From a virus, in the IMG/VR virus record IMGVR_UViG_3300017951_000128, positions 1 to 24,226 of that record: a stretch of 24,226 nucleotides of DNA; one strand, 5' to 3'. The notes under the pieces were generated by a model, which ran no database searches, had not been told where the DNA came from, and worked only from the letters and a program-made list of their open reading frames with translations. Positions 4,908 through 23,273 of this stretch are shown one piece after another (position 1 is the first letter of the stretch; every line of letters begins with the position of its first letter). The translations under genes were made by a program, and so were the position numbers.

Positions 4908-7511
4908 TTAACTTACTCCACTATTCAAATTTGGATCTATACTTGCTACTAATATCGGACTTCTTACCCAATCAGGATCATATCTACCATTAGACAAAAA
5001 CTTAGCTTGATAGTAACCTTGATCTTTTGGATAGCCAAGATTAAATCCGCCTTCTGTACCAGCAATGGCCATTCTAAAGTTTCCTAAAACACCTCTACCA
5101 AAATCTCTATATCTTTCTTTAAGGTATGCGGCAGTAACAGCAACACTCTTTGCTACATCTGTAAGCATCAACGTAGGATCATCTACAATTTCTACACCGA
5201 ATGGATTATAATCTGACACTAACTCTTCTTTTGTAAGTCCAGCAAGTTTACCATAACGTTCGTGATTGCCTTTACCTGTTAGCTGTATTAGTCCTCTTCC
5301 GATAAATTTAGCACCATCACCTGCTGTTGTATTGCCCATGTTACGTCCAAGTCTATGTTGATTACCGTAAACATATTCAAAAAATTGTGCTTTATCAGCT
5401 TTAAGTTCTGTTAGTGCAGAATCACTAAGTTGTCGTGTACTGCTAAAAATACTACGTATTCTATCGTTGCTTGTTCCGCCATATCCGCCTTCAGTTTTCA
5501 ATTCTAATCCGGATTCAGTTTCAGCACAAGCAATAGCAGAGTAAACTTGTTCTTCTGTAAATCCTTCTGCATAAAGAGCTTGTGCAAATACACGAGATAA
5601 CTCTTGTTTACTTACTTTTACAGGTTCTGGATCAGGTGGAATATTTGCCGCTCCTACAGGATCAAATCTTGCACTTCCTTCCGGTGCTGTTCCTGAGGTA
5701 TTGTAACTATTTGGTTGAGATCCTGAAAGTACAACTGTTCCTCCAGGTCCTCTAGCAAATGTATCTGGAGTGCTAGGAGGATAAGTTTCAGGTTGTGAGT
5801 TTCCTGCACGTATATTATCTGAACTATATTTTACTGGATCTAAATGTTCATGTTCAAACCAAGGTTCTTGTGAAGGACGTCTACTTGTTTCTCTTGCTAA
5901 TTCAGGAGGAGTAGGATCTACAATATTTGGAGCAGGTGGAATAACTGCTTCTGCAGGTGCTTGCGGCGCTGGAGGAGTTGATCCTTGAATATCAATATCG
6001 TTTCCGTCAGCATATATTACCATGTTTGCACCAGCATGTAAATTTTGTGTAGCATCAGATCGTAGTGTCATAGTGCCTACACTCTTAACATGAAAAATAT
6101 TCCCTGCTTCTATTTTCGTTGCTAATGCACTTTTTTGCGAAATCTCGGCTTCTGCTAATACTTTAATATTTCCTAATGCTTTTAAATTATAATCTCCATC
6201 AGTAGTAATGTTTACATATCCACAACCTTCTATACCTACACCTGTTGCACTACCAAGAGCTAAATTTTCTCCAGATATAACACTTTGTTTTGCACCTGCA
6301 ACAATACTACCTTCGTTAGTCGCATATAGTATCATATTAGTGTTGGTTTGCATACTTATATCAGCACTTGCATTTACACTAAACTGTGTACCGCTTACCA
6401 TATTGGTGCTGTTAATAGTGCTTGTTTTAATTTTATCTGCTACAAGATTAAATGTTTGACCAGCTGTAATGTTAACATCTTTATCTGCCGTAAAATTAAT
6501 ATCTTCTTGAGATCTTACACTAATACTATCTCTACTGTAAATATCAATTTTTCCGTTACTTGTAAGTTCAATCCACGCTGTTCCTCTACTGTTACTAATG
6601 TAAATTAAATCTTCAGTATTGTGCAACACAATTTGGTGTCCTGTACGTGTTCTTAATCGGACATGCTCATTGTGAGGAAGTGTAGGATCGCCGCCATCTT
6701 CTCTAGCCTCTAAATTTATATATTGCATAGGTGTTTCCCAAGGTTTACCTATACGTAAAAATTTATCATCACCGTCGTCCATTACAAAACTAGAACCGCC
6801 TAATCTACTTTTGAACATGCTTACTTTAGTACCTTCGTGTCCAATTTCAGCTTTTGGAGCACCTTCTCTTTTATCTAAAGGTCCTGGTGTACTCCATCCA
6901 AATACTGCACTCGGAATATCTCTTCTAGCACTTGATGTTGTGATTCCCCTTACTTCGTCTTCAATTAAACCACTTTGTATAAGACTTTTTGCCAAATCTA
7001 AATGAACAGATTTTTGCACTGTTGTAGGATCTGATGGAGTTTGATGAATAAATTTATTAAATTCTGCGGCTGGTGCTTTTTTCGGAAAGTCTCGCAAATT
7101 TGCTGTTGAAGAATTTCCGGGTACCATAAAATTCATAAATTCGTCTTGGATACATCCTATCCAATAACACTTGCTTGTATTTCCTTCTGCAAAAATTACA
7201 AGAACTCTTGTACCAACATCAGGTGGCACTGCCCAAAATCCTGAACTTTGTTGTGTGTGTCTATAACCTTCATTTCTTGATGATTGAGAAACTGGTGTTA
7301 CATTGTAAAAGGGACTCAAATAACTTGCTTCAAATATTTGTCCTGATCTTTCTGGTTGGTTACCCGAAGCAGACTGTTTTAGCAATTCAACCTGTAGTGT
7401 ACCCATGTATTTTGTATCAAGATTGTTAATTACAATAGCTTCAAACGGACCTGGACTTAGAGGTTGTGTAGGCCTTACTGATCTTCCTTGTGTTCTACTC
7501 ATTCCTGCCAT
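4908..7511 (-). CDS. 5: Baseplate hub / tail lysozyme gp5 with C-terminal GH19-type hydrolase
   Basis: Central spike protein of the baseplate hub. The N-terminal ~140 residues look like the gp5/VgrG OB-fold (PFEAIVINNLDTKYMGTLQV, GTRVLVIFAEGN). The middle carries a long repetitive beta-region with IDIYSRDSISVRSQEDINFT-type repeats, expected for the trimeric beta-helix. A Pro-rich linker leads to a C-terminal domain (roughly residues 635-835) with ACAETESG and KFIGRGLIQLTGKGN, the signature of GH19 chitinase/lysozyme enzymes. T4 gp5 instead has a T4-lysozyme domain between the OB-fold and the helix. I chose the ATG at 7511: it forms a TAATG overlap with the upstream stop and has GGAAGGTGG upstream. 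A longer frame from 7529 would overlap the previous gene without a better ribosome site. Confidence 0.88.
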   Translation of the reverse strand: MAGMSRTQGRSVRPTQPLSPGPFEAIVINNLDTKYMGTLQVELLKQSASGNQPERSGQIFEASYLSPFYNVTPVSQSSRNEGYRHTQQSSGFWAVPPDVGTRVLVIFAEGNTSKCYWIGCIQDEFMNFMVPGNSSTANLRDFPKKAPAAEFNKFIHQTPSDPTTVQKSVHLDLAKSLIQSGLIEDEVRGITTSSARRDIPSAVFGWSTPGPLDKREGAPKAEIGHEGTKVSMFKSRLGGSSFVMDDGDDKFLRIGKPWETPMQYINLEAREDGGDPTLPHNEHVRLRTRTGHQIVLHNTEDLIYISNSRGTAWIELTSNGKIDIYSRDSISVRSQEDINFTADKDVNITAGQTFNLVADKIKTSTINSTNMVSGTQFSVNASADISMQTNTNMILYATNEGSIVAGAKQSVISGENLALGSATGVGIEGCGYVNITTDGDYNLKALGNIKVLAEAEISQKSALATKIEAGNIFHVKSVGTMTLRSDATQNLHAGANMVIYADGNDIDIQGSTPPAPQAPAEAVIPPAPNIVDPTPPELARETSRRPSQEPWFEHEHLDPVKYSSDNIRAGNSQPETYPPSTPDTFARGPGGTVVLSGSQPNSYNTSGTAPEGSARFDPVGAANIPPDPEPVKVSKQELSRVFAQALYAEGFTEEQVYSAIACAETESGLELKTEGGYGGTSNDRIRSIFSSTRQLSDSALTELKADKAQFFEYVYGNQHRLGRNMGNTTAGDGAKFIGRGLIQLTGKGNHERYGKLAGLTKEELVSDYNPFGVEIVDDPTLMLTDVAKSVAVTAAYLKERYRDFGRGVLGNFRMAIAGTEGGFNLGYPKDQGYYQAKFLSNGRYDPDWVRSPILVASIDPNLNSGVS

Positions 7512-10500
7512 TAAAATCCACCTTCCCATCTACCAGTTCTTTTATTGTAGCGAACATTTCCACCAAGATCTGCTCTTGGTAAATTTACTGCCGGAGCATC
7601 AATATTTCCTTCATTAAGACGCTGAAGTTGTGAAGCCGCTTCACTAGCCGATTGTTCTATAGCTGTTGGAATTTGTACTGGAATATTTTGATTAGCAATA
7701 TTAATTGCTTGTTCTGTACTTACAGGACCATTAGGTAGACCTCCTCTTAGCAAAGGACTTACTCCTAATGTATCTCTATTTAATAATTGTTCTGAACTCA
7801 TAATACTATCTGTGTATGCACTTGGATTGATTGTAGTAACAGCATCGTTAAGACTAGAAAGATTTTGTCCTAAACTATTTTGTAAGTTACTTCCAACACT
7901 TGATCCAATGTTTCCTAAAACATCGCCTCCATTTAAATTTAGCTGTGTAAGACCTAGTAAGTCTTGAGAAGCGGCTGTAAGTGCATTGAAGTCTGTACCT
8001 ATCTGTGCTAGATCTTTTATGTTTATACCATTTTGGAATGTTTCAAATGCACTTGCAACTTGACTAAATGCCGCAAACGCATCACTGCCTATTATATCTC
8101 TTGTTTTTGTAATGACACTTCTAAGGTTATTAAATCCTGGTAAAATGTTTTCTGCTTCTACCATCCAGTCTAATCTATTAGCTGTATCACCTACTCTAGA
8201 ATTTGTAGCTGTCAATCGTTTTGCAAATTCTGCTGTAATCTCATTTACACTTTCTGCTGGATTAGTAATAGGAACTAGAGCTCCTACATTTTGGCTTGGT
8301 CCAGATTCTTCTTGATTACGCATTCTAATCATTTGCAATTCTTGTGTAAATACACCTTCTTCAAATTTATGCTGTATTTGAATCACTCTATATAAACCAC
8401 TAAACGTATCAACAATTATTAAATCTTCTGGAAAGATCATTTTGCCCGAAGTTGGATCTGTATCTACAGGTGTCCTAAATAATACATTACAATAAACTTC
8501 ACTTCTTCCTGTATTCACTTGCCCGTCAGCTGTCATTGCTGTGTAAGCAGTATCTCTAGCATGATAGTTACCTACACCGTTATCAGATAACCAAAAAGGA
8601 TCACCTACAATACGCATGTCTACCCTAATCATGTCTACATTAGAAAAAATTAATCTATCGTTAAAAGCTCTAGCAACTTGTATTTGAGGATCTGCAATTC
8701 CGCTACTGTGATCATTTCCTGAAGCGTTATTAACAGTTTCAACAGCTGATGCTTGTCCTTCTATAGGTGTGGTAGTGCCTGCTCCGTCACCTCCTGATCT
8801 AAAGCCAGGATGAGGGTGTCTTGCGGCTTGCCCTTCTGCCGCACCTACTCTATCTGCGGCTGAACCTGATCCTCTGTCAGCTGTAAAAGGTGCCAAAAAT
8901 GCGTAATTGTATTCTATATTAAAATCAAGGACTGATTTATTTTTTCCTGTATAAACATAGTTGTATTCTTTTGCGGCTTGTACTTTTCTTTCTGCTACTC
9001 CTTGTGTAGGTTCACTTACTGCCGCAAAATGTTCGTGACCGTATTTTTTTGGAACAACACGATAAACATACAAAGACGGATATTGACCACCTCTTTGCAA
9101 TTCTTCTTCGTCTTTGATGACGTATGTATCTGTCTGTATGTCATACCAATCTACCATGCCATCTTCTGGAAGATCATTTAGTTGGCGTGCAAGAGCCCTT
9201 CCGTATTGGCTACTAATTAAAACTTCTTCAATAATTTCTTGTATTCTAGTACCTGCCTTAAATGAAAATACTCTTATATCATCTGAAAGTTGTAAATTTC
9301 TACTAGTTCGGTTAAAAATAGGATACCTTTGTGATAAACTTTCTTGGTCTGCTAAACCTTGCGAATTCATTGGTTGAGTTCCTCCTGCAAGAGGATCGTC
9401 AATAATCCATTTACTTCCAATTTTATTATTGCTGTAATCACTTGCCGCATATTTCTTAAACATTGTTTCTAACAAACTACTATCAGTAGTTCTATTTGCT
9501 AAACCGTTATAAAATTCTGCGAAGGTTCCTGGCACTTCTTCTGAACCGGCATCTGTACCTACTAAACTTTGATAGTATTCTGATAGATATGCATCAGTAG
9601 TTGGTCTATTAGTGTCTGCTGGACTGCTTACACCAAATTCGTCATAGCCCGGTTGCGCTGTAGCTGTGCCTGTATCAAATTCTCCTCCAGCACCATATGC
9701 ATCATAAATGCTTTTTGGTTCAGATTCTCCTGGAAACAATATAACATATTGATCCGGAGCGGCTACTTGATTTTTTTCTTTTAACTCTTTTAATCTTTTG
9801 TTGTTTATTTCAGTTAAGCTCTGTGCACCTGTTTGTAACATTTCTCTAATTGTTCTGCCACGTAATGCTACATCTGTTTTTATTTGTGTCACTGAATCGT
9901 GTAGTGCCTGCTCATTCCATGCTATAGCTTCTACTTTGTAGGTTGATCCACCTTCGTTTGTTACAAACTGACTATTGATTAATTTTATAGGAAGTAACCT
10001 TCTACCATAAGGAACGTCCATTACGTTACCATCAACGTCATAACCTTTAAAATCAATTGTTAACAAAAAAGGCGCTTGTATGTAATGACCAAAACCTGCT
10101 GACTTTGCGGCAACTAAAAGTGCTTGATAAAAAAGTCCCATACTGTAAGGTTCGTAAACTTCAAATTCAATTTTTGTTGCATTAGAATTTCTATTCCTAG
10201 AACCCATCATAACTATGGACTGTATGTTAAGATTATCCATAAAGAATTCAACACTTGCACCCATTGCTTGTTCTACTCTAGTTCTTGATTCTTTACCTGT
10301 GCGTTTAGCACCGCCACCATTTTGTATAATAGACCATTTGGGTTTTGTAGTTCTATAAAGTTCTGGTTTGTTTATTTCATCTTGAGTAAGTATATGCAAA
10401 CCAAGAATAGCGTTCATACTTGAATAATCTTCTAATTCATTTGGCCAAGGTGGAGGAGTTACTCCAGGTACCAGTTCTCCAGCACGTACCGAATGTCCAA

Positions 10501-16994: not shown

Positions 16995-17642
16995 ATGCGT
17001 GTAACAGATATTACAGAACAACAAATCAACGAAGCACCAACTAGTAGACTTGGAAATTTCGCCAAAAAAATAGGTGCAAAAGCCGCAGGTGCTGTAGGTA
17101 TGTCAGGAACAGCTGGACGACTTGGTGGCGGTGCAGAAGTAGGAACAAAAGCAAACGAATTATACAAATCACTTGCAAGATGGCAAGGTATTAACGGCAA
17201 AAATGATAAAAACATGACAGCGGCTGATGTTAAAGCATGGGCGGCTCAGGACAAAGTTAATGTAAGCGCAGTTCAAATGCCAAATGGTGTACTTCCTAAA
17301 AATAAATTAATGGATATTATGAAAAAAGTTGCGGCTAGTGAATTAACTGGCGGTAACGTAGGTGCAGAACCGGCATCTAAAGCGCAGGCCACACCGCAGA
17401 GCGGTGGTGGAGGAGCTATTAGCAAAGCAATTGACGCCCTACAAAAAACAACAGGTAAGGCTGGTGTAAACAATACTCCGGGTAATGCAGTTCCTGCATC
17501 TGATGAAGCAGGTTCAAAAGCAAATCAACAACCTGCAAACGTTAAAGATTTAAAAAACAAAGAAGGTATTCCACCTAACATTCAAACTATGTTAGATAAA
17601 CTTACTCCTACAGAGAAAAAAGCACTTGCAGGAGCAATATAA
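16995..17642 (+). CDS. Unknown probable virion protein (215 aa)
   Basis: I do not recognise a named family. The protein is rich in Ala, Gly and Lys, with a Gly-rich N-terminal part (FAKKIGAKAAGAVGMSGTAG), a more ordered middle (ELYKSLARWQGINGK... AADVKAWAAQ) and a C-terminal linker rich in Pro, Gln and Asn ending LTPTEKKALAGAI. It has no signal peptide or clear membrane span. A late promoter and a good AGGA site precede it, and its TAATG overlap with the next gene argues that the two products act together. Late expression and the position among structural genes suggest an internal or structural virion component, which is an inference. Confidence 0.75.
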   Translation: MRVTDITEQQINEAPTSRLGNFAKKIGAKAAGAVGMSGTAGRLGGGAEVGTKANELYKSLARWQGINGKNDKNMTAADVKAWAAQDKVNVSAVQMPNGVLPKNKLMDIMKKVAASELTGGNVGAEPASKAQATPQSGGGGAISKAIDALQKTTGKAGVNNTPGNAVPASDEAGSKANQQPANVKDLKNKEGIPPNIQTMLDKLTPTEKKALAGAI

Positions 17643-19597
17643 TGCAACTAGGCGAAGTAACAAACTATAATTTACGTTCACAAACGATATTAAATGAAAG
17701 TTGGCAAGATCTAACAGAAAGCCAACGCTTGTATATAGGCCGTTGGGAAAAAGAATTATGGCCTTTGTTAGAAGAATACACAAAACAAATTAATGAAGCA
17801 ACACTAACTGTTGATCAAATTGAAGCAATCTTCAAAGGTGCTGAATCGCAAGCAATGGCTGGCGGTGACAATAAGAATATCCTTGGCAAAGCAGGATCGG
17901 CCGCAGGGGCAGTAGCTAAACTTCCAATTGACATTGCAAAAAAAGTAGATGCAAAAATAAATGAACTAGGCAAAGCCGCAAAAAATGCTGGTCCAGTAAA
18001 AAACATGGACAAAAAATTTAATGATCTCAAAGCAGACATTATGGCAAACAAGCCAGACAGTAAAGTTGTACAAGGTATTGTTAAAGTAAGTGACTGGGCA
18101 AAAGCAAATCCAGGCAAGGCAAGTATTGCAGTTGGTATTCTAACAGCTATTGCGGCATTCGCAGGTGGACCAATGGGCGGTGCGGCCGCTGGTTTAATAC
18201 TACGTTCAACAAATGAATTATTAAAAGGTGAAGATTTATCTTCGGCAATAGGAAAGTCTGTTAAAACTGCCGCTTACGGTGCTCTTGCTGGCTGGGCACT
18301 TCAAGGTATTGGTGACTGGTTAGAAGGATTGCGATTTGATGCAGTACCTTATGAAAAAGCACCTGGACTAACAACTATGGAAGTTGGATTTCAAAAAACT
18401 TTAGAAGTTCCGGGATTTAAAGCAGTTGATACACTAGGTAGTATTATAGTTCCAGAAGACCGTGTTGGAGAATTTACTCAATTACTTGACGCAATGAAAG
18501 ATGCAACAGCCGCAACAGGTAGCACAACTGATCCTGCGGCACTAGATGCATTTAGTCAACTTAAAAACTTTGTAGATGGCTTTGATAAAGGAGAATTTAT
18601 CAAAGATATGAATCTTGCAAACGAAGTAGCACAAGAAATTGCCGCACAAAATGATGCATTCTTACAAAACTTAACTGCCGCTAATAGTGCTATTGCCGCA
18701 GTTGCACAAGGTAGTATACAAGGTGCAGGAGAAAAAGGTGCATTTAAAATTGGCGGTGACGAAGTTAAGCCTGGAGATGTTGTAACAAGTGCGGCAGGTA
18801 ATAAAAAGGTTGCAGGTGTAGATAGTAAAGCAACAACAACTGATCCTAGCAATTTAGCTGGCAGAGCTAAAATTATGAAAGCGGCAGACGAATCAGTTGA
18901 TATGGAAACAGAATTTGAACGTTTCTTAGCAGAAGCTGGAGTAATGGACAAAATTAAATCTGGTGTCAAATCAGCCGCTGGCGCAGTAGCAGGCGGTGCA
19001 AAAGCTGTTGGTAAAGAATTAGGTAACAAAGTTACATACAACAAACTTATGAAACAGTGGAAAGGAGCAGGGGAACCTGCCGACACTGCAAGTATTATGA
19101 ATATATTACAAGATGCTGGACTAACTAACGACCAAATTGCAAACATAGGACAGGAAGCCAAAGTAGATCTTGGTAAGCCTAGTGAGCAACCTAAAGCAAG
19201 TGAACCGGCAACAGCAAGTGAACCAGCACCAAGTGGTGAACAACCATCAAACACAGCAACCCAACCAACAGGAGATACTAAAGTGGAACCATCAGAAATC
19301 CAAAAAGGTGATACAAGAGAAGTAAACGGAAAAACTTACAAATGGATGGGAGCTCTTTGGGTAGACACAGCAACAAACAAACCTATTGGAATTTTGCCTT
19401 CAATGAAAGCAGGACTTCCTAATCCAAAATTAGATCCTATTATACAAGCCGCTAAAAACGATCCAGAACTAGCAAAATTAATAAAAGCACAAGTGACTTC
19501 AAAAGGTGTAGAAGCAGGCTCAGCAGGCGCACAACAAGCCGCACAAGCTGGTGTACAAGGTACTGAAAAACTTGATGCAAAAGGTGTAAGTACTTAA
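17642..19597 (+). CDS. Unknown probable virion protein (651 aa), membrane-like segment
   Basis: A multi-part protein without a family name I can give. The N-terminus (ESQRLYIGRWEKELWPLLEEY) resembles, from memory, an unannotated structural protein of marine T4-like phages. Residues ~161-187 form a hydrophobic Gly/Ala stretch (IAVGILTAIAAFAGGPMGGA and on) long enough to cross a membrane. After about residue 415 an EFERFLAEAGVMDKIKSG segment leads to an Ala/Gly helix, a low-complexity Pro/Ser/Glu linker (about 515-550) and a short domain with TREVNGKTYKWMGALWVD. Coupled by TAATG to the 215-aa gene. A packaged protein released into the host with DNA would fit the hydrophobic part, but this is speculation. 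Its stop overlaps the convergent gp26 frameshift extension by 4 bases. Confidence 0.75.
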   Translation: MQLGEVTNYNLRSQTILNESWQDLTESQRLYIGRWEKELWPLLEEYTKQINEATLTVDQIEAIFKGAESQAMAGGDNKNILGKAGSAAGAVAKLPIDIAKKVDAKINELGKAAKNAGPVKNMDKKFNDLKADIMANKPDSKVVQGIVKVSDWAKANPGKASIAVGILTAIAAFAGGPMGGAAAGLILRSTNELLKGEDLSSAIGKSVKTAAYGALAGWALQGIGDWLEGLRFDAVPYEKAPGLTTMEVGFQKTLEVPGFKAVDTLGSIIVPEDRVGEFTQLLDAMKDATAATGSTTDPAALDAFSQLKNFVDGFDKGEFIKDMNLANEVAQEIAAQNDAFLQNLTAANSAIAAVAQGSIQGAGEKGAFKIGGDEVKPGDVVTSAAGNKKVAGVDSKATTTDPSNLAGRAKIMKAADESVDMETEFERFLAEAGVMDKIKSGVKSAAGAVAGGAKAVGKELGNKVTYNKLMKQWKGAGEPADTASIMNILQDAGLTNDQIANIGQEAKVDLGKPSEQPKASEPATASEPAPSGEQPSNTATQPTGDTKVEPSEIQKGDTREVNGKTYKWMGALWVDTATNKPIGILPSMKAGLPNPKLDPIIQAAKNDPELAKLIKAQVTSKGVEAGSAGAQQAAQAGVQGTEKLDAKGVST

Positions 19598-19824
19598 AAG
19601 AAAGGCTGTCCGGTCTTTTTTGTTGTTTCTAAATTTTCTTTAATTAATTCAGCTATTATTTTTCTATCTTCAGGTTCCATCATAAATGCTTCTTCTAGTG
19701 TGATGCTTCCTCGCATGTGCCACATCATACGCATAATATCAGATTTTAGCTGTTTGCTTTGCCCTTCAAGATTTTTTACTTCTTGTAGGATCTGTTCAAC
19801 GGGCCACTGAACGATCCTTACGCG
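19594..19824 (-). CDS. Frameshift extension of gp26 (76 codons, -1 frame, gp51-position domain)
   Basis: On the minus strand, the -1 frame relative to gp26 is open from the slippery site to TAA at 19596-19594. It encodes 76 residues including ILQEVKNLEGQSKQLKSDIM, then RMMWHMRGSITLEEAF, and ends TTKKTGQPFF. From memory, this is a conserved small protein found next to gene 26 in marine T4-like phages. There is no ATG, GTG or TTG in frame between an upstream in-frame TGA and the first ATG at codon 31, which lies after the conserved LEGQ part. So it cannot be made whole by ordinary initiation. A -1 shift at TTTTTTC would give a gp26 fusion of about 378 aa. In T4, genes 26 and 51 are neighbours, so a gp51 relationship is possible but unproven. 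Confidence 0.8.
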   Translation of the reverse strand, partial: RVRIVQWPVEQILQEVKNLEGQSKQLKSDIMRMMWHMRGSITLEEAFMMEPEDRKIIAELIKENLETTKKTGQPFF

Positions 19825-19830
19825 AAAAAA
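19788..19830 (-). promoter_or_regulatory. -1 ribosomal frameshift signal at the end of gp26
   Basis: The minus strand reads ACT TTT TTC GCG TAA in the gp26 frame. T TTT TTC (19830-19824) is a canonical X XXY YYZ slippery heptamer in the correct phase. Six bases later begins a hairpin: GGATCGTTCA (19817-19808) pairs with TGAAC-A-GATCC (19798-19788), that is 10 bp with one bulged A and a 9-nt loop. Slippery site, 6-nt spacer, stem and a zero-frame stop in the spacer are the four parts of a standard stimulatory cassette. Confidence 0.85.
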
Positions 19831-20729
19831 GTTGATTGATCAAATGTAATTGGAATTTGAAAAGTTTCCGGAACTCCTTGTTCAATTTGTTCTTCTGTTG
19901 CTCTAACATCCATAGGAGGTACTTGAAATTTTTCTTTTTCAGTTTTAATATGTTCTTGTAAAGCATTAAAAAATTTCTTTTCACTATTTTCTAAAAATTC
20001 TGTAATAAAGGCTCTTTCAGTTACTTCTGTTGTATCTTCAGCTGATAGTAAAGTAATTTTTTCTACACTATTTGCAACCATTTGCAGTGTTAGGTCTCTT
20101 ATTTTATTAAAACTTTCTGTAAATTTTTGAAGTTTTATATCTTCTTGCATATCATCTGTGTTTACAAGTGCAAGTATTCTTTGTTCTTCAAAAGTTTGCA
20201 TGTTAATTTTACTAAAATCCATATAGGTCAACGGTTTTGTTGTAACTTCCATATTTTCAAAAGTAAATGTTGGATTGAACACAGCATTTGTGTATCTATC
20301 TAGTACTTGTCGGAGGTCGATAGAGTAATCAACAGTTTCTTTTAAGCCTGGAGGAGTAGCAGTAATTTCCATTGTTTCACCATAGGTTGCAATTCTAATA
20401 GCAACAAGACTTGCATCAATATCTAGTGCTGGCATTTTCCAAGGATCTTTAATATTAGGAATACAACTTTTTATCATGTCTACAGTTGCTTGTCCATTTA
20501 AAAGAGCATCAGGTGTTTTAAGAGCTAGTTCGTCTTTTGCTGTCATAGCATAAACTGGAAGCTCTCCGTTTTCTGGCATTTCTAAACTACCTTCTGGATA
20601 GTATTTTCCTTTGCTAGGCAGTGTTAGATAAATTTTAGGTTGTCTAAAATGTTTTCTAAGTGGATTGTCTCCACTTGGTTTTATTTCTTGCATAAGTGGG
20701 TTATGTCCACTAGGCTTTATTTCTGGCAT
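19818..20729 (-). CDS. 26: Baseplate hub / tail assembly protein gp26
   Basis: The core FRQPKIYLTLPSKGKYYPEG, then ELPVYAMTAKDELALKTPDA, LLNGQATVDMIKSCIPNIKD and VAIRIATYGE, is the distinctive T4-like gp26 family (pfam T4_baseplate type), needed for hub assembly. At 303 aa it is longer than T4 gp26 (208 aa). The ATG at 20729 is preceded by GGAGGA with ideal spacing and by a TATAAATA late promoter. The first 24 residues are a tandem duplication (MPEIKPSGHNPL, MQEIKPSGDNPL) before the conserved region. The gene ends TTTTTTCGCGTAA with a frameshift cassette leading into a conserved extension, so two products (303 and about 378 aa) are predicted. It lies divergently from the tape measure gene. 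Confidence 0.9.
   Translation of the reverse strand: MPEIKPSGHNPLMQEIKPSGDNPLRKHFRQPKIYLTLPSKGKYYPEGSLEMPENGELPVYAMTAKDELALKTPDALLNGQATVDMIKSCIPNIKDPWKMPALDIDASLVAIRIATYGETMEITATPPGLKETVDYSIDLRQVLDRYTNAVFNPTFTFENMEVTTKPLTYMDFSKINMQTFEEQRILALVNTDDMQEDIKLQKFTESFNKIRDLTLQMVANSVEKITLLSAEDTTEVTERAFITEFLENSEKKFFNALQEHIKTEKEKFQVPPMDVRATEEQIEQGVPETFQIPITFDQSTFFA
20658..20729 (-). repeat. 36-bp tandem duplication at the gp26 N-terminus
   Basis: Two copies (20729-20694 and 20693-20658) identical at 30 of 36 bases. Three of the six differences are silent. Each begins with ATG; only the first has a ribosome site. Confidence 0.9.
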
Positions 20730-20772: not shown

Positions 20773-20780
20773 TATTTATA
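20773..20780 (-). promoter_or_regulatory. Late promoter of gp26
   Basis: TATAAATA on the minus strand, an exact match to the T4 late consensus. Predicted start near 20767, with a 38-nt leader containing GGAGGA. Confidence 0.75.
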
Positions 20781-20807
20781 TACGCACATAATGGGATTCT
20801 GTTGTTT

Positions 20808-23273
20808 ATGACTGTAAAAGGTACTATAGGTCAAGAAGATGTAATTTTAGAAGACGCGGCCACGGAAGCCACGCTCAAATCCATACTTGCCGCTATACAA
20901 GGCGGTGGCATGGGCGGTGGTGGAGGTGCAGGAGGCGGCCCTAAGCAAGCCCAGCAAAAGCTACTGGATCTGGCCAAGCAAACTGGTAAAACTAGTAAAA
21001 CCGTAAAAGATTTTGAAGAAGATGTAGAAAATGCAGGTAATGCTCTTACTAGAGGATTCGGACATATTGGTCAAGGACTATCAAACATTGCTATGGAGTT
21101 TATGTCAGGCACTGACAGACTCAGCGAATTTAGCCAACACATAACAGGAGTAATATCTAACATTCCTATTATAGGAGGAATGCTTGGAGGTGGTCTACAA
21201 TTACTTACAAGTGTAGTCGATCAACAAATTGATGTATTTAGAGACATGTCAAAAGTAGGTGCAGGTTTTGGTAATGACCTAATGGCAACTAGACTAGCGG
21301 CCGCTAATGCTGGACTACAATTAGATACGTTCACAGGTATAATTACACAAAATTTAGATAACTTAAATTTCTTTGCAGGCTCTGCTTCTGAAGCATCAAG
21401 ACGTTTTGCTAACATAAGTGGACAAGTACAAAAAAATCAAATGCAATTCTCAAGATTAGGAATGACTATGGAAGAAGTTGGCCAATATACTGCTGACTAC
21501 ATAGCATTGCAAGCTAGATCCGGTAGGGCACAAAGGATGACTGATGCTCAATTAGCCGCAGGAACTCAAGGATATATCAAGAATTTAGATCAATTAGCTA
21601 GAATGACCGGTAAACAGCGTGACGAGATTGCGGCTGAACTAAAATCACAAGCAGAAGATGATAGAATTAATTTGTTGTTTGCTAGCCTTGATGCTGGGGC
21701 ACAACAAAACATACAAAATGTTCTGTCAATGGTTGGTGATGCATCTCCAGAAATGAAAAATGCACTTACAGAAATGATAGCTACAGGCGGTGCTCCTCTA
21801 ACAATGTATGGAGCAGAACTTGTAAATGCAAATTCAAATTTAGCGGCCGCGGCCCAAAATTTAAAAAATAATGCACCTGGTGCAATGGAAGAATTTTTGA
21901 AAGAAATGGACATTGCTGTAAGGAATTCACAAAATGCTGGACAAGCACATTTAGATACACTAGCCGTATCTAGAGCACTAGGTAACGAATATGGTGCGGC
22001 AACATCAGACATGGTTAGTATGAATGATAATATGCTTGATAGGTATTTGGAATCGCAACGTGAGTTAAATGCACAAACAGAAGATACAAAATTAGACATG
22101 ACTAATTTTGAAAGTGCAATTACAAAAATTAAAAATACTATACAAACTGCATTGATAGACAGCGGTATCTTCACACTTATTAATACAGAAATGAGTAAAT
22201 TTACAGCTTGGTTAAGTGGTCCTGAGGCACTAACAGCAGTGCAAGGAGCAATACAGCCTTTTGTAGATTTTTTCAAAGGTTTTATTGCAGACTTTAATGA
22301 TCCTACAAAAGAACCTATGGCGGTTATCAAAGAATATCTAAACAAAGGATTAAGCAAACTAGGTGAACTAATTAAACCATTAATTGCAAGTGCATTCAGT
22401 GGACTAGGCAGTATGATTATGGGAGCTATCTTTGGCGGTGGCAGTAGTGATGAAACATCAGTACCTGGTGGACCTCCAGGGTCTGGAGATGAATCTTCGG
22501 GCGCAGGATCGGGAGGCATATTTGTAGGACTAGACGGTGCCTTAGAAAAATTAGCTACAATGGTAGCAGTAGGTGGAACAGTTTATCTTGCTATCAAAGG
22601 TTTCCAAATGTTACTAGGTGGATTTAGCGCACCAAATGTTATACTTGGTGCAGGTGTACTAGCAGGATTATTAATCGGTACAGGCGCGGCAATAGCCCTT
22701 GCAGGCCAAGGCATAAGTTCTGCAGGTGATGGCATAGAAAAAATGGCCACAGGTGTTGAACGTATGGCCGCAGTTAAAGATACAGCAAATCTAAAAGACG
22801 TTGCAGTAGCACTTGGTGATCTAGGTAAGGCAATGATAGCTCTTACTGCTGGTGGAGTGCTTGACAGCATAATGAGTTTCTTTGGTGCCGATTCACCTTT
22901 TGAAAAACTAGTAAAAGGTATTAATGAGTTTTCACAAATTGATGCAACAGCAGTATCAAACCTAACTGCGTCTAGCAGTGGACTTGCAAATCTTAAAGCC
23001 TTTACTGAAGATTTAGATGCAGACGGTGTACGTAACTATGCAAGAGCTCTTAGAGAGTTAACAACAGCTATGAAACAACTGAACACAGTACTAGCTGACC
23101 AAAATACAGGTAGAAAAGAGAGCGGATATGCAGTAGCAGACATGCTCAAATCTGGAGCATTAGGCGGCGGTGGCGGCATAAGTAATAGTGGAATGAGTCA
23201 ATTAATTGATTTAATGCGTGAAAATAATAGAATAACAGACCAAATACGAAGGCTAACGGGCGATACTTTGTAG
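20808..23273 (+). CDS. Tail tape measure protein (gp29 equivalent)
   Basis: An 821-aa protein with tape-measure character: long helical stretches, a Gly-rich run near residues 33-47, hydrophobic blocks (SNIPIIGGMLGGGLQLLTSV near 115-140; a long one from roughly 585 to 665 containing VILGAGVLAGLLIGTGAAIA), and repeated Ala/Gln/Asn-rich helices. It lies beside gp26, with portal gp20 next on the same strand. No enzymatic motif is visible. A TTG six bases earlier (20802) could also serve; I prefer the ATG at 20808 although its ribosome site (GGGA, far upstream) is weak. The C-terminus (MSQLIDLMRENNRITDQIRR) is a likely coiled coil. T4 gp29 is about 590 aa, so this would imply a longer tail if length scaling holds. 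Confidence 0.72.
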   Translation: MTVKGTIGQEDVILEDAATEATLKSILAAIQGGGMGGGGGAGGGPKQAQQKLLDLAKQTGKTSKTVKDFEEDVENAGNALTRGFGHIGQGLSNIAMEFMSGTDRLSEFSQHITGVISNIPIIGGMLGGGLQLLTSVVDQQIDVFRDMSKVGAGFGNDLMATRLAAANAGLQLDTFTGIITQNLDNLNFFAGSASEASRRFANISGQVQKNQMQFSRLGMTMEEVGQYTADYIALQARSGRAQRMTDAQLAAGTQGYIKNLDQLARMTGKQRDEIAAELKSQAEDDRINLLFASLDAGAQQNIQNVLSMVGDASPEMKNALTEMIATGGAPLTMYGAELVNANSNLAAAAQNLKNNAPGAMEEFLKEMDIAVRNSQNAGQAHLDTLAVSRALGNEYGAATSDMVSMNDNMLDRYLESQRELNAQTEDTKLDMTNFESAITKIKNTIQTALIDSGIFTLINTEMSKFTAWLSGPEALTAVQGAIQPFVDFFKGFIADFNDPTKEPMAVIKEYLNKGLSKLGELIKPLIASAFSGLGSMIMGAIFGGGSSDETSVPGGPPGSGDESSGAGSGGIFVGLDGALEKLATMVAVGGTVYLAIKGFQMLLGGFSAPNVILGAGVLAGLLIGTGAAIALAGQGISSAGDGIEKMATGVERMAAVKDTANLKDVAVALGDLGKAMIALTAGGVLDSIMSFFGADSPFEKLVKGINEFSQIDATAVSNLTASSSGLANLKAFTEDLDADGVRNYARALRELTTAMKQLNTVLADQNTGRKESGYAVADMLKSGALGGGGGISNSGMSQLIDLMRENNRITDQIRRLTGDTL

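What the first reader, a model, noticed from the sequence alone, without database searches (positions are those of the whole stretch)
19594..19832. Complete -1 programmed frameshift cassette fusing gp26 to a start-less conserved domain
Seen directly: slippery T TTT TTC in phase with gp26, a 6-nt spacer containing the gp26 TAA, a 10-bp hairpin with one bulge, and a 76-codon -1 frame with no start codon before its conserved LQEVKNLEGQ part. An in-frame TGA just upstream of the slippery site rules out an upstream start. Known: tail phages such as lambda (G/GT) use -1 shifts to make a tail-assembly chaperone next to the tape measure gene. Here gp26 is adjacent to the tape measure gene. Inference: gp26 and gp26-ext are the T4-like counterpart of G and GT, and the separate T4 genes 26 and 51 may be a split version. 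I do not know of a published description.
Basis: partly seen in the sequence, partly recalled or inferred. Interest (0 to 1): 0.88.

Follow-up and report, generated by a model that had tools for sequence, protein, structure and literature searches.

The report
Frameshifted tail-chaperone gene in T4-like phage
This marine virus of bacteria makes a short and a long version of one tail-building helper protein by letting some ribosomes slip back one base at TTTTTTC; the signal is real and very widely conserved in T4-like phages, but this way of making tail chaperones is already described.

Summary
On the minus strand, gp26 (19818-20729) ends ACT TTT TTC GCG TAA. An in-phase T TTT TTC heptamer is followed by a 6-nt spacer, a bulged hairpin and a 76-codon -1 frame. 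That frame has no ATG/GTG/TTG in its first 30 codons and a TGA just upstream.

It is far from chance. In 25 non-redundant relatives (47-89% nucleotide identity), 70 gp26 columns encode a conserved amino acid with synonymous codons; only three have an invariant codon: AAT TTT TTC, the heptamer. It is present in 66/66 and 70/70 further distinct loci, in KVP40, S-PM2 and P-SSM2, and (two as T TTT TTT) in 12 jumbo phages. The extension is under purifying selection (median dN/dS 0.07). The hairpin is lineage-specific.

T4 lacks the heptamer and has two copies of the family: gp26 (core) and gp51 (core plus extension domain), a duplicate rather than a split gene.

Best reading: a -1 programmed ribosomal frameshift making short and long tail assembly chaperones for the tape measure protein, like lambda G/GT. 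T4-like chaperones of this kind were published in 2022 (Vladimirov, Gautam & Davidson; seen only through citing papers). This is a new member of a known kind.

The parts
19818..20729 (-). gp26 / short tail assembly chaperone (TAC-N), 303 aa
   Evidence: PF12322 E 4.9e-9, phrog_150 E 1.6e-14; AlphaFold2 model pLDDT 83 matches predicted T4-like baseplate hub assembly proteins in BFVD, best E 2e-21, TM 0.81
19824..19830 (-). slippery heptamer T TTT TTC
   Evidence: in frame with gp26; codons invariant in 25/25 non-redundant relatives and present in 66/66 plus 70/70 further distinct loci
19818..19823 (-). 6-nt spacer GCGTAA containing the gp26 stop TAA
19788..19817 (-). downstream hairpin, 10 bp with one bulged A (19793), likely frameshift stimulator
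   Evidence: z -3.4; some covarying pairs within the subclade; mean folding energy dips to -11.7 right after the heptamer versus -4.9 (sd 1.3) elsewhere in 38 relatives
19594..19830 (-). -1 frame extension (TAC-C): FF plus 76 codons and stop; joined to gp26 residues 1-302 it gives a 378-aa long form (TAC-NC)
   Evidence: conserved in all relatives, median dN/dS 0.07, open only in this frame
19840..19842 (-). TGA in the -1 frame just upstream of the heptamer, ruling out an upstream start in that frame
20773..20780 (-). TATAAATA, a match to the T4-type late promoter consensus, 43 nt upstream of the gp26 ATG
   Evidence: only match in the window, but about 3 are expected by chance
20802..23273 (+). 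probable tape measure protein gene, head-to-head with gp26 and upstream of the portal gene
   Evidence: phrog_14121 E 1.4e-8; same gp26/structural protein/portal layout in jumbo phages; its relative in Serratia phage BF also hits tape-measure profiles at about 3e-6

Best explanation
The locus is a -1 programmed ribosomal frameshift tail assembly chaperone gene. Most ribosomes end at the gp26 TAA and make the short chaperone (303 aa). A minority slip from TTT TTC to TTT TTT at U UUU UUC, helped in this phage by the hairpin that begins 6 nt downstream, and make a 378-aa long form with a helical C-terminal domain. By analogy with lambda gpG/gpGT, the core coats the tape measure protein encoded next door and the extra domain recruits tail tube subunits; both forms should be absent from, or minor in, the finished virion. 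Shown here: the sequence anatomy, its conservation, the coding constraint on the extension, and the single core copy in frameshift phages against two copies in T4. Inferred: that slippage happens on the ribosome, its efficiency, and the chaperone role.
For: Heptamer codons are the only invariant synonymous codons in gp26 across 25 non-redundant relatives. The heptamer is in 66/66 and 70/70 further distinct loci, in 12 jumbo phages (two as T TTT TTT) with gp26 only 25-33% identical to this one, and in P-SSM2, S-PM2 and KVP40; phiM12, HTVC008M and phiM9 have T TTT TTT or T TTT TTG. The -1 frame is always long and conserved, with median dN/dS 0.07 over 60 pairs. 26 of 66 relatives have no start codon in its first 15 codons, and PA5oct has none anywhere in it. 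Folding energy dips sharply right after the heptamer. Frameshift phages hold one copy of the core, T4 holds two. T4 gp26 ends GAG TTC TTT GAG, without the heptamer, and gp51 carries core plus extension in one frame. The extension profile aligns with the cyanophage -1 domains and T4 gp51 C-terminus (hhalign E 2.7e-5, probability 75%). Published precedent.
Against: No protein or reporter data. The hairpin is absent or weak in the sister clade (L017-L036 group) and in several jumbo phages, so the stimulator is not universal. The profile link between this extension and the T4 gp51 tail is moderate (probability 75%; 12% with the narrower alignment). No solved structure matches the models. The gene lies head-to-head with the tape measure gene rather than directly upstream in one operon as in lambda.
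Confidence: 0.93

Rival explanations
1. The extension is a separate small protein started by re-initiation after the gp26 stop (translational coupling), as GenBank annotates it in several relatives.
For: Some relatives have an ATG overlapping or just after the gp26 stop: Phosso, 121Q, BF and KVP40 and P-SSM2 gene gp51; all 70 cyanophage-type loci have a start within 15 codons.
Against: In the window the first ATG/GTG/TTG is at codon 33; PA5oct has none; 26 of 66 close relatives have none in the first 15 codons, while the heptamer is invariant. Conservation of the -1 frame also runs upstream of any start. T4 gp51 has the domain fused to the core.
Confidence: 0.04
2. The frame change is made by RNA polymerase slipping on the T6-T8 run (transcriptional slippage), giving a mixed mRNA population.
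For: Every lineage checked keeps a run of at least six T, which either mechanism could use; HTVC008M has eight.
Against: The seventh base is C in almost all cases, which shortens the run, although TTT would also encode Phe and is the commoner Phe codon here. The run is held in ribosomal phase close to the stop, and a hairpin with a 6-nt spacer follows it in many relatives.
Confidence: 0.03
3. Assembly error or decayed gene: a single-base error in the A6 run splits one continuous gene.
For: Homopolymer at the junction.
Against: Same frame relation in over 130 independent contigs and in isolate genomes of many phages.
Confidence: 0.003

Closest known systems
[quoted passage not shown]
   Same: Short (TAC-N) and long (TAC-NC) forms of the T4-like chaperone; citing papers say poly-T slippery signals occur in T4-like TAC-N genes and that some T4-like phages carry a short and a separate fused long gene instead (PMC12846349, PMC10885494)
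   Different: The original paper is not in the held library, so I could not see whether this uncultivated marine clade or the jumbo phages were included
Phage lambda gpG/gpGT and the conserved -1 frameshift of long-tailed phages (reviewed in PMC5009743)
   Different: U UUU UUC rather than lambda's G GGA AAG (from memory); heptamer only 3 nt before the zero-frame stop; gene divergent from the tape measure gene. The review still lists T4 as the exception
T4 gp26 and gp51 (hub assembly chaperones)
   Same: Both are members of PF12322/phrog_150; gp51 equals core plus extension domain, the counterpart of the frameshift product
   Different: Two separate divergent genes, no slippery heptamer at the gp26 end
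Vandenendeviridae / Andersonviridae TAC frameshift (PMC12846349)
   Same: Conserved -1 shift at a poly-T motif (GTTTTT) at the TAC-N 3' end
   Different: Different phage families; homology to the present core not tested here

Membership tests
T4 gp26/gp51 baseplate hub assembly family (PF12322, phrog_150) | Profile match of the core over most of its length | tested here: met
   PF12322 36.6 bits versus cut-off 24.5, E 4.9e-9; phrog_150 E 1.6e-14
T4 gp26/gp51 baseplate hub assembly family (PF12322, phrog_150) | Extension homologous to the gp51 C-terminal domain | tested here: inconclusive
   Broad extension profile versus cyanophage -1 domains plus T4 gp51 tail: E 2.7e-5, probability 75%; weaker with the narrow profile. 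The position after the core and the -1 relation agree
[quoted passage not shown]
Frameshift tail assembly chaperones (lambda G/GT kind) | Conserved coding extension in the -1 frame under purifying selection | tested here: met
   median dN/dS 0.07; differences by codon position 566/277/1348
Frameshift tail assembly chaperones (lambda G/GT kind) | Adjacent to the tape measure gene | tested here: met
   Neighbour 20802-23273 is a probable tape measure protein by position and profile links; orientation is divergent, unlike lambda
Frameshift tail assembly chaperones (lambda G/GT kind) | Core binds the tape measure protein, extension binds the tail tube protein, low long-to-short ratio, absent from the virion | not testable with these tools
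   needs biochemistry or proteomics
Frameshift tail assembly chaperones (lambda G/GT kind) | Stimulatory RNA structure downstream of the heptamer | tested here: met
   Met in this phage and about half of its relatives (20 of 38 below -10 kcal/mol); not in the L017-type clade. That it stimulates is not shown

The most novel reading that the evidence does not exclude
One frameshift signal, U UUU UUC, is ancestral to the whole T4-like superfamily, including 280-490 kb jumbo phages of enterobacteria, pseudomonads and rhizobia, marine phages and vibriophages. It has been kept almost letter for letter across host phyla, and T4 itself is the derived exception that replaced it by a gene duplication and inversion. 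The jumbo-phage and marine-clade part may be undescribed.
Probability: 0.55. Interest if true: 0.42.

Novelty: new member of a known kind. Interest (0 to 1): 0.33.

Why it matters
It would correct the annotation of a widely misannotated locus: the 'hypothetical protein' or 'gp51' ORF after gene 26 in cyanophages and jumbo phages is most likely the second half of a frameshift product. It also fits a simple explanation of the old T4 puzzle of gp51, an essential hub-assembly protein of unknown function that is not in the particle (PMC3004832): gp51 would be the long chaperone isoform, made from its own gene instead of by frameshifting.

Tried and rejected
Single-sequence profile scans of the 76-aa extension gave no significant Pfam or PHROG match. 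Foldseek against the PDB gave nothing for the extension and only noise for the core. The refutation 'loss of stem in close homologues' was partly met: a sister clade lacks the hairpin yet keeps the heptamer and extension, so the hairpin is not the defining element. Assembly error was rejected. A conserved hairpin by covariation alone is only modestly supported: 6 cells with two-sided change versus 2.6 in shuffles, and the slide control at -1 is similar. One huge uncultured phage (L059, LR756511) has no T6 heptamer within the 60 nt before its core stop; its junction was not resolved. The Virology 2022 paper could not be opened.

Full report
Observation. The minus strand of the window was read directly. 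gp26, 19818-20729, ends GAT CAA TCA ACT TTT TTC GCG TAA. T TTT TTC lies in phase, the spacer is GCGTAA, and a bulged 10-bp stem follows. The -1 frame gives FF-RVRIVQWPVEQILQEVKNLEGQSKQLKSDIMRMMWHMRGSITLEEAFMMEPEDRKIIAELIKENLETTKKTGQPFF. A TGA lies just upstream in that frame, and no ATG/GTG/TTG occurs before codon 33. All stated details are right.

Identity. gp26 matches PF12322 (T4_baseplate) and phrog_150 (baseplate hub). An AlphaFold2 model (pLDDT 83) matches predicted T4-like baseplate hub assembly proteins. The extension model is helical (pLDDT 78) with no match in the PDB. The divergent neighbour 20802-23273 is the probable tape measure gene, followed by the portal gene. The same layout (gp26, structural protein, portal) occurs in jumbo phages.

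Conservation. Thirty-eight loci from IMG/VR, down to 36% amino-acid identity, all keep T TTT TTC two codons before the gp26 stop, and all whose contig does not end there keep a conserved -1 extension. Two further loci are truncated before the site, and one distant locus (L041) has T TTT TTT. In 25 non-redundant relatives with 47-89% nucleotide identity, 70 alignment columns hold a conserved amino acid with more than one codon. Sixty-seven vary in codon; the three that do not are AAT TTT TTC. Two further collections of 66 and 70 distinct loci, the second of cyanophage type, have the heptamer without exception (the first collection shares some contigs with the earlier set). The extension has median dN/dS 0.07 over 60 pairs, third-position changes dominate (566/277/1348), and the other frames contain stops in every relative.

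Breadth. Twelve jumbo phages, including Agrobacterium Atu_ph07, Sinorhizobium Phosso, Pseudomonas PA5oct, Escherichia 121Q, Salmonella Munch, Serratia BF, Klebsiella K64-1, Cronobacter GAP32 and Vibrio 2.275.O, keep T TTT TTC or T TTT TTT and a -1 extension. So do P-SSM2 and S-PM2, with phiM12 and phiM9 having T TTT TTT and T TTT TTG, and KVP40 and HTVC008M. In PA5oct the whole -1 extension contains no ATG, GTG or TTG, so a separate start is very unlikely there.

T4. phrog_150 covers T4 gp51 from 3 to 281 and T4 gp26 from 10 to 236. In P-SSM2, S-PM2, HTVC008M, phiM12 and phiM9 the last part of the profile (about 206-282) matches in the -1 frame overlapping the gp26 end. T4 therefore has both forms as two divergent genes, and its gp26 ends GAG TTC TTT GAG without a heptamer. 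A genome-wide search finds two core copies in T4 and one in each of the 14 other phages tested. KVP40 and P-SSM2 records already name the small ORF after gp26 as gp51-like or gp51. The profile link of this window's extension to the T4 gp51 tail is suggestive, not decisive (E 2.7e-5, probability 75%).

Stimulator. The mean folding energy of 45-nt windows is -11.7 kcal/mol right after the heptamer and -4.9 (sd 1.3) elsewhere in 38 relatives; 20 of the 38 are below -10. A sister clade (L017 and its kin) lacks the hairpin. Covariation within the window's subclade is modest. The heptamer is the constant element and the RNA structure is lineage-specific.

Mechanism. The best explanation is a -1 programmed ribosomal frameshift yielding a 303-aa short and a 378-aa long tail assembly chaperone. 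Re-initiation is possible in some relatives as an addition but does not explain the window or PA5oct. Transcriptional slippage cannot be excluded by sequence alone; phase, the C at position 7 and the hairpin speak for the ribosome.

Prior knowledge. A 2016 review lists T4 as the exception to conserved G/GT frameshifting (PMC5009743). Vladimirov, Gautam & Davidson (Virology 2022) identified the T4-like chaperone genes. Citing papers report that poly-T slippery sites occur in T4-like TAC-N genes and that some T4-like phages use a separate fused long gene (PMC12846349, PMC10885494). From memory, not checked here, its abstract names genes 26 and 51 and says frameshifting is conserved in several T4-like groups. 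The locus is therefore a new, very clear member of a known kind; what may be unreported is the reach into jumbo phages and this marine clade.

Noticed in passing
19824 (seventh base of the heptamer) and the same base in relatives: The last base of the heptamer is C almost without exception, although TTT would also encode Phe and is the commoner Phe codon in these genes; only a few distant phages have T or G there. Why C is preferred is unexplained.
   Followed up: partly
16995-19597: Two long plus-strand ORFs (215 and 651 aa) of Ala/Gly/Lys-rich composition with no significant family match. The 651-aa ORF ends head-on with the frameshift extension (stop ends 19597 versus 19594), so the two genes overlap by 4 nt.
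   Followed up: no
4908-7529: The gp5-like baseplate hub and lysozyme protein (phrog_13211) carries an endolysin/chitinase-like region near its C-terminus (about residues 657-796).
   Followed up: no
L043, L045, L057 (Atu_ph07, PA5oct, K64-1): In deposited jumbo-phage records the extension is missing or cut short (123 nt in Atu_ph07, 126 nt in K64-1, no ORF in PA5oct), probably because annotation required a start codon.
   Followed up: partly
L059 (LR756511.1, 595-kb uncultured phage): The core is present but no T6 heptamer lies within 60 nt of its stop, while a -1 frame nearby contains an extension-like motif (NERKYIIHKFIEQ); it may use another slippery site.
   Followed up: no
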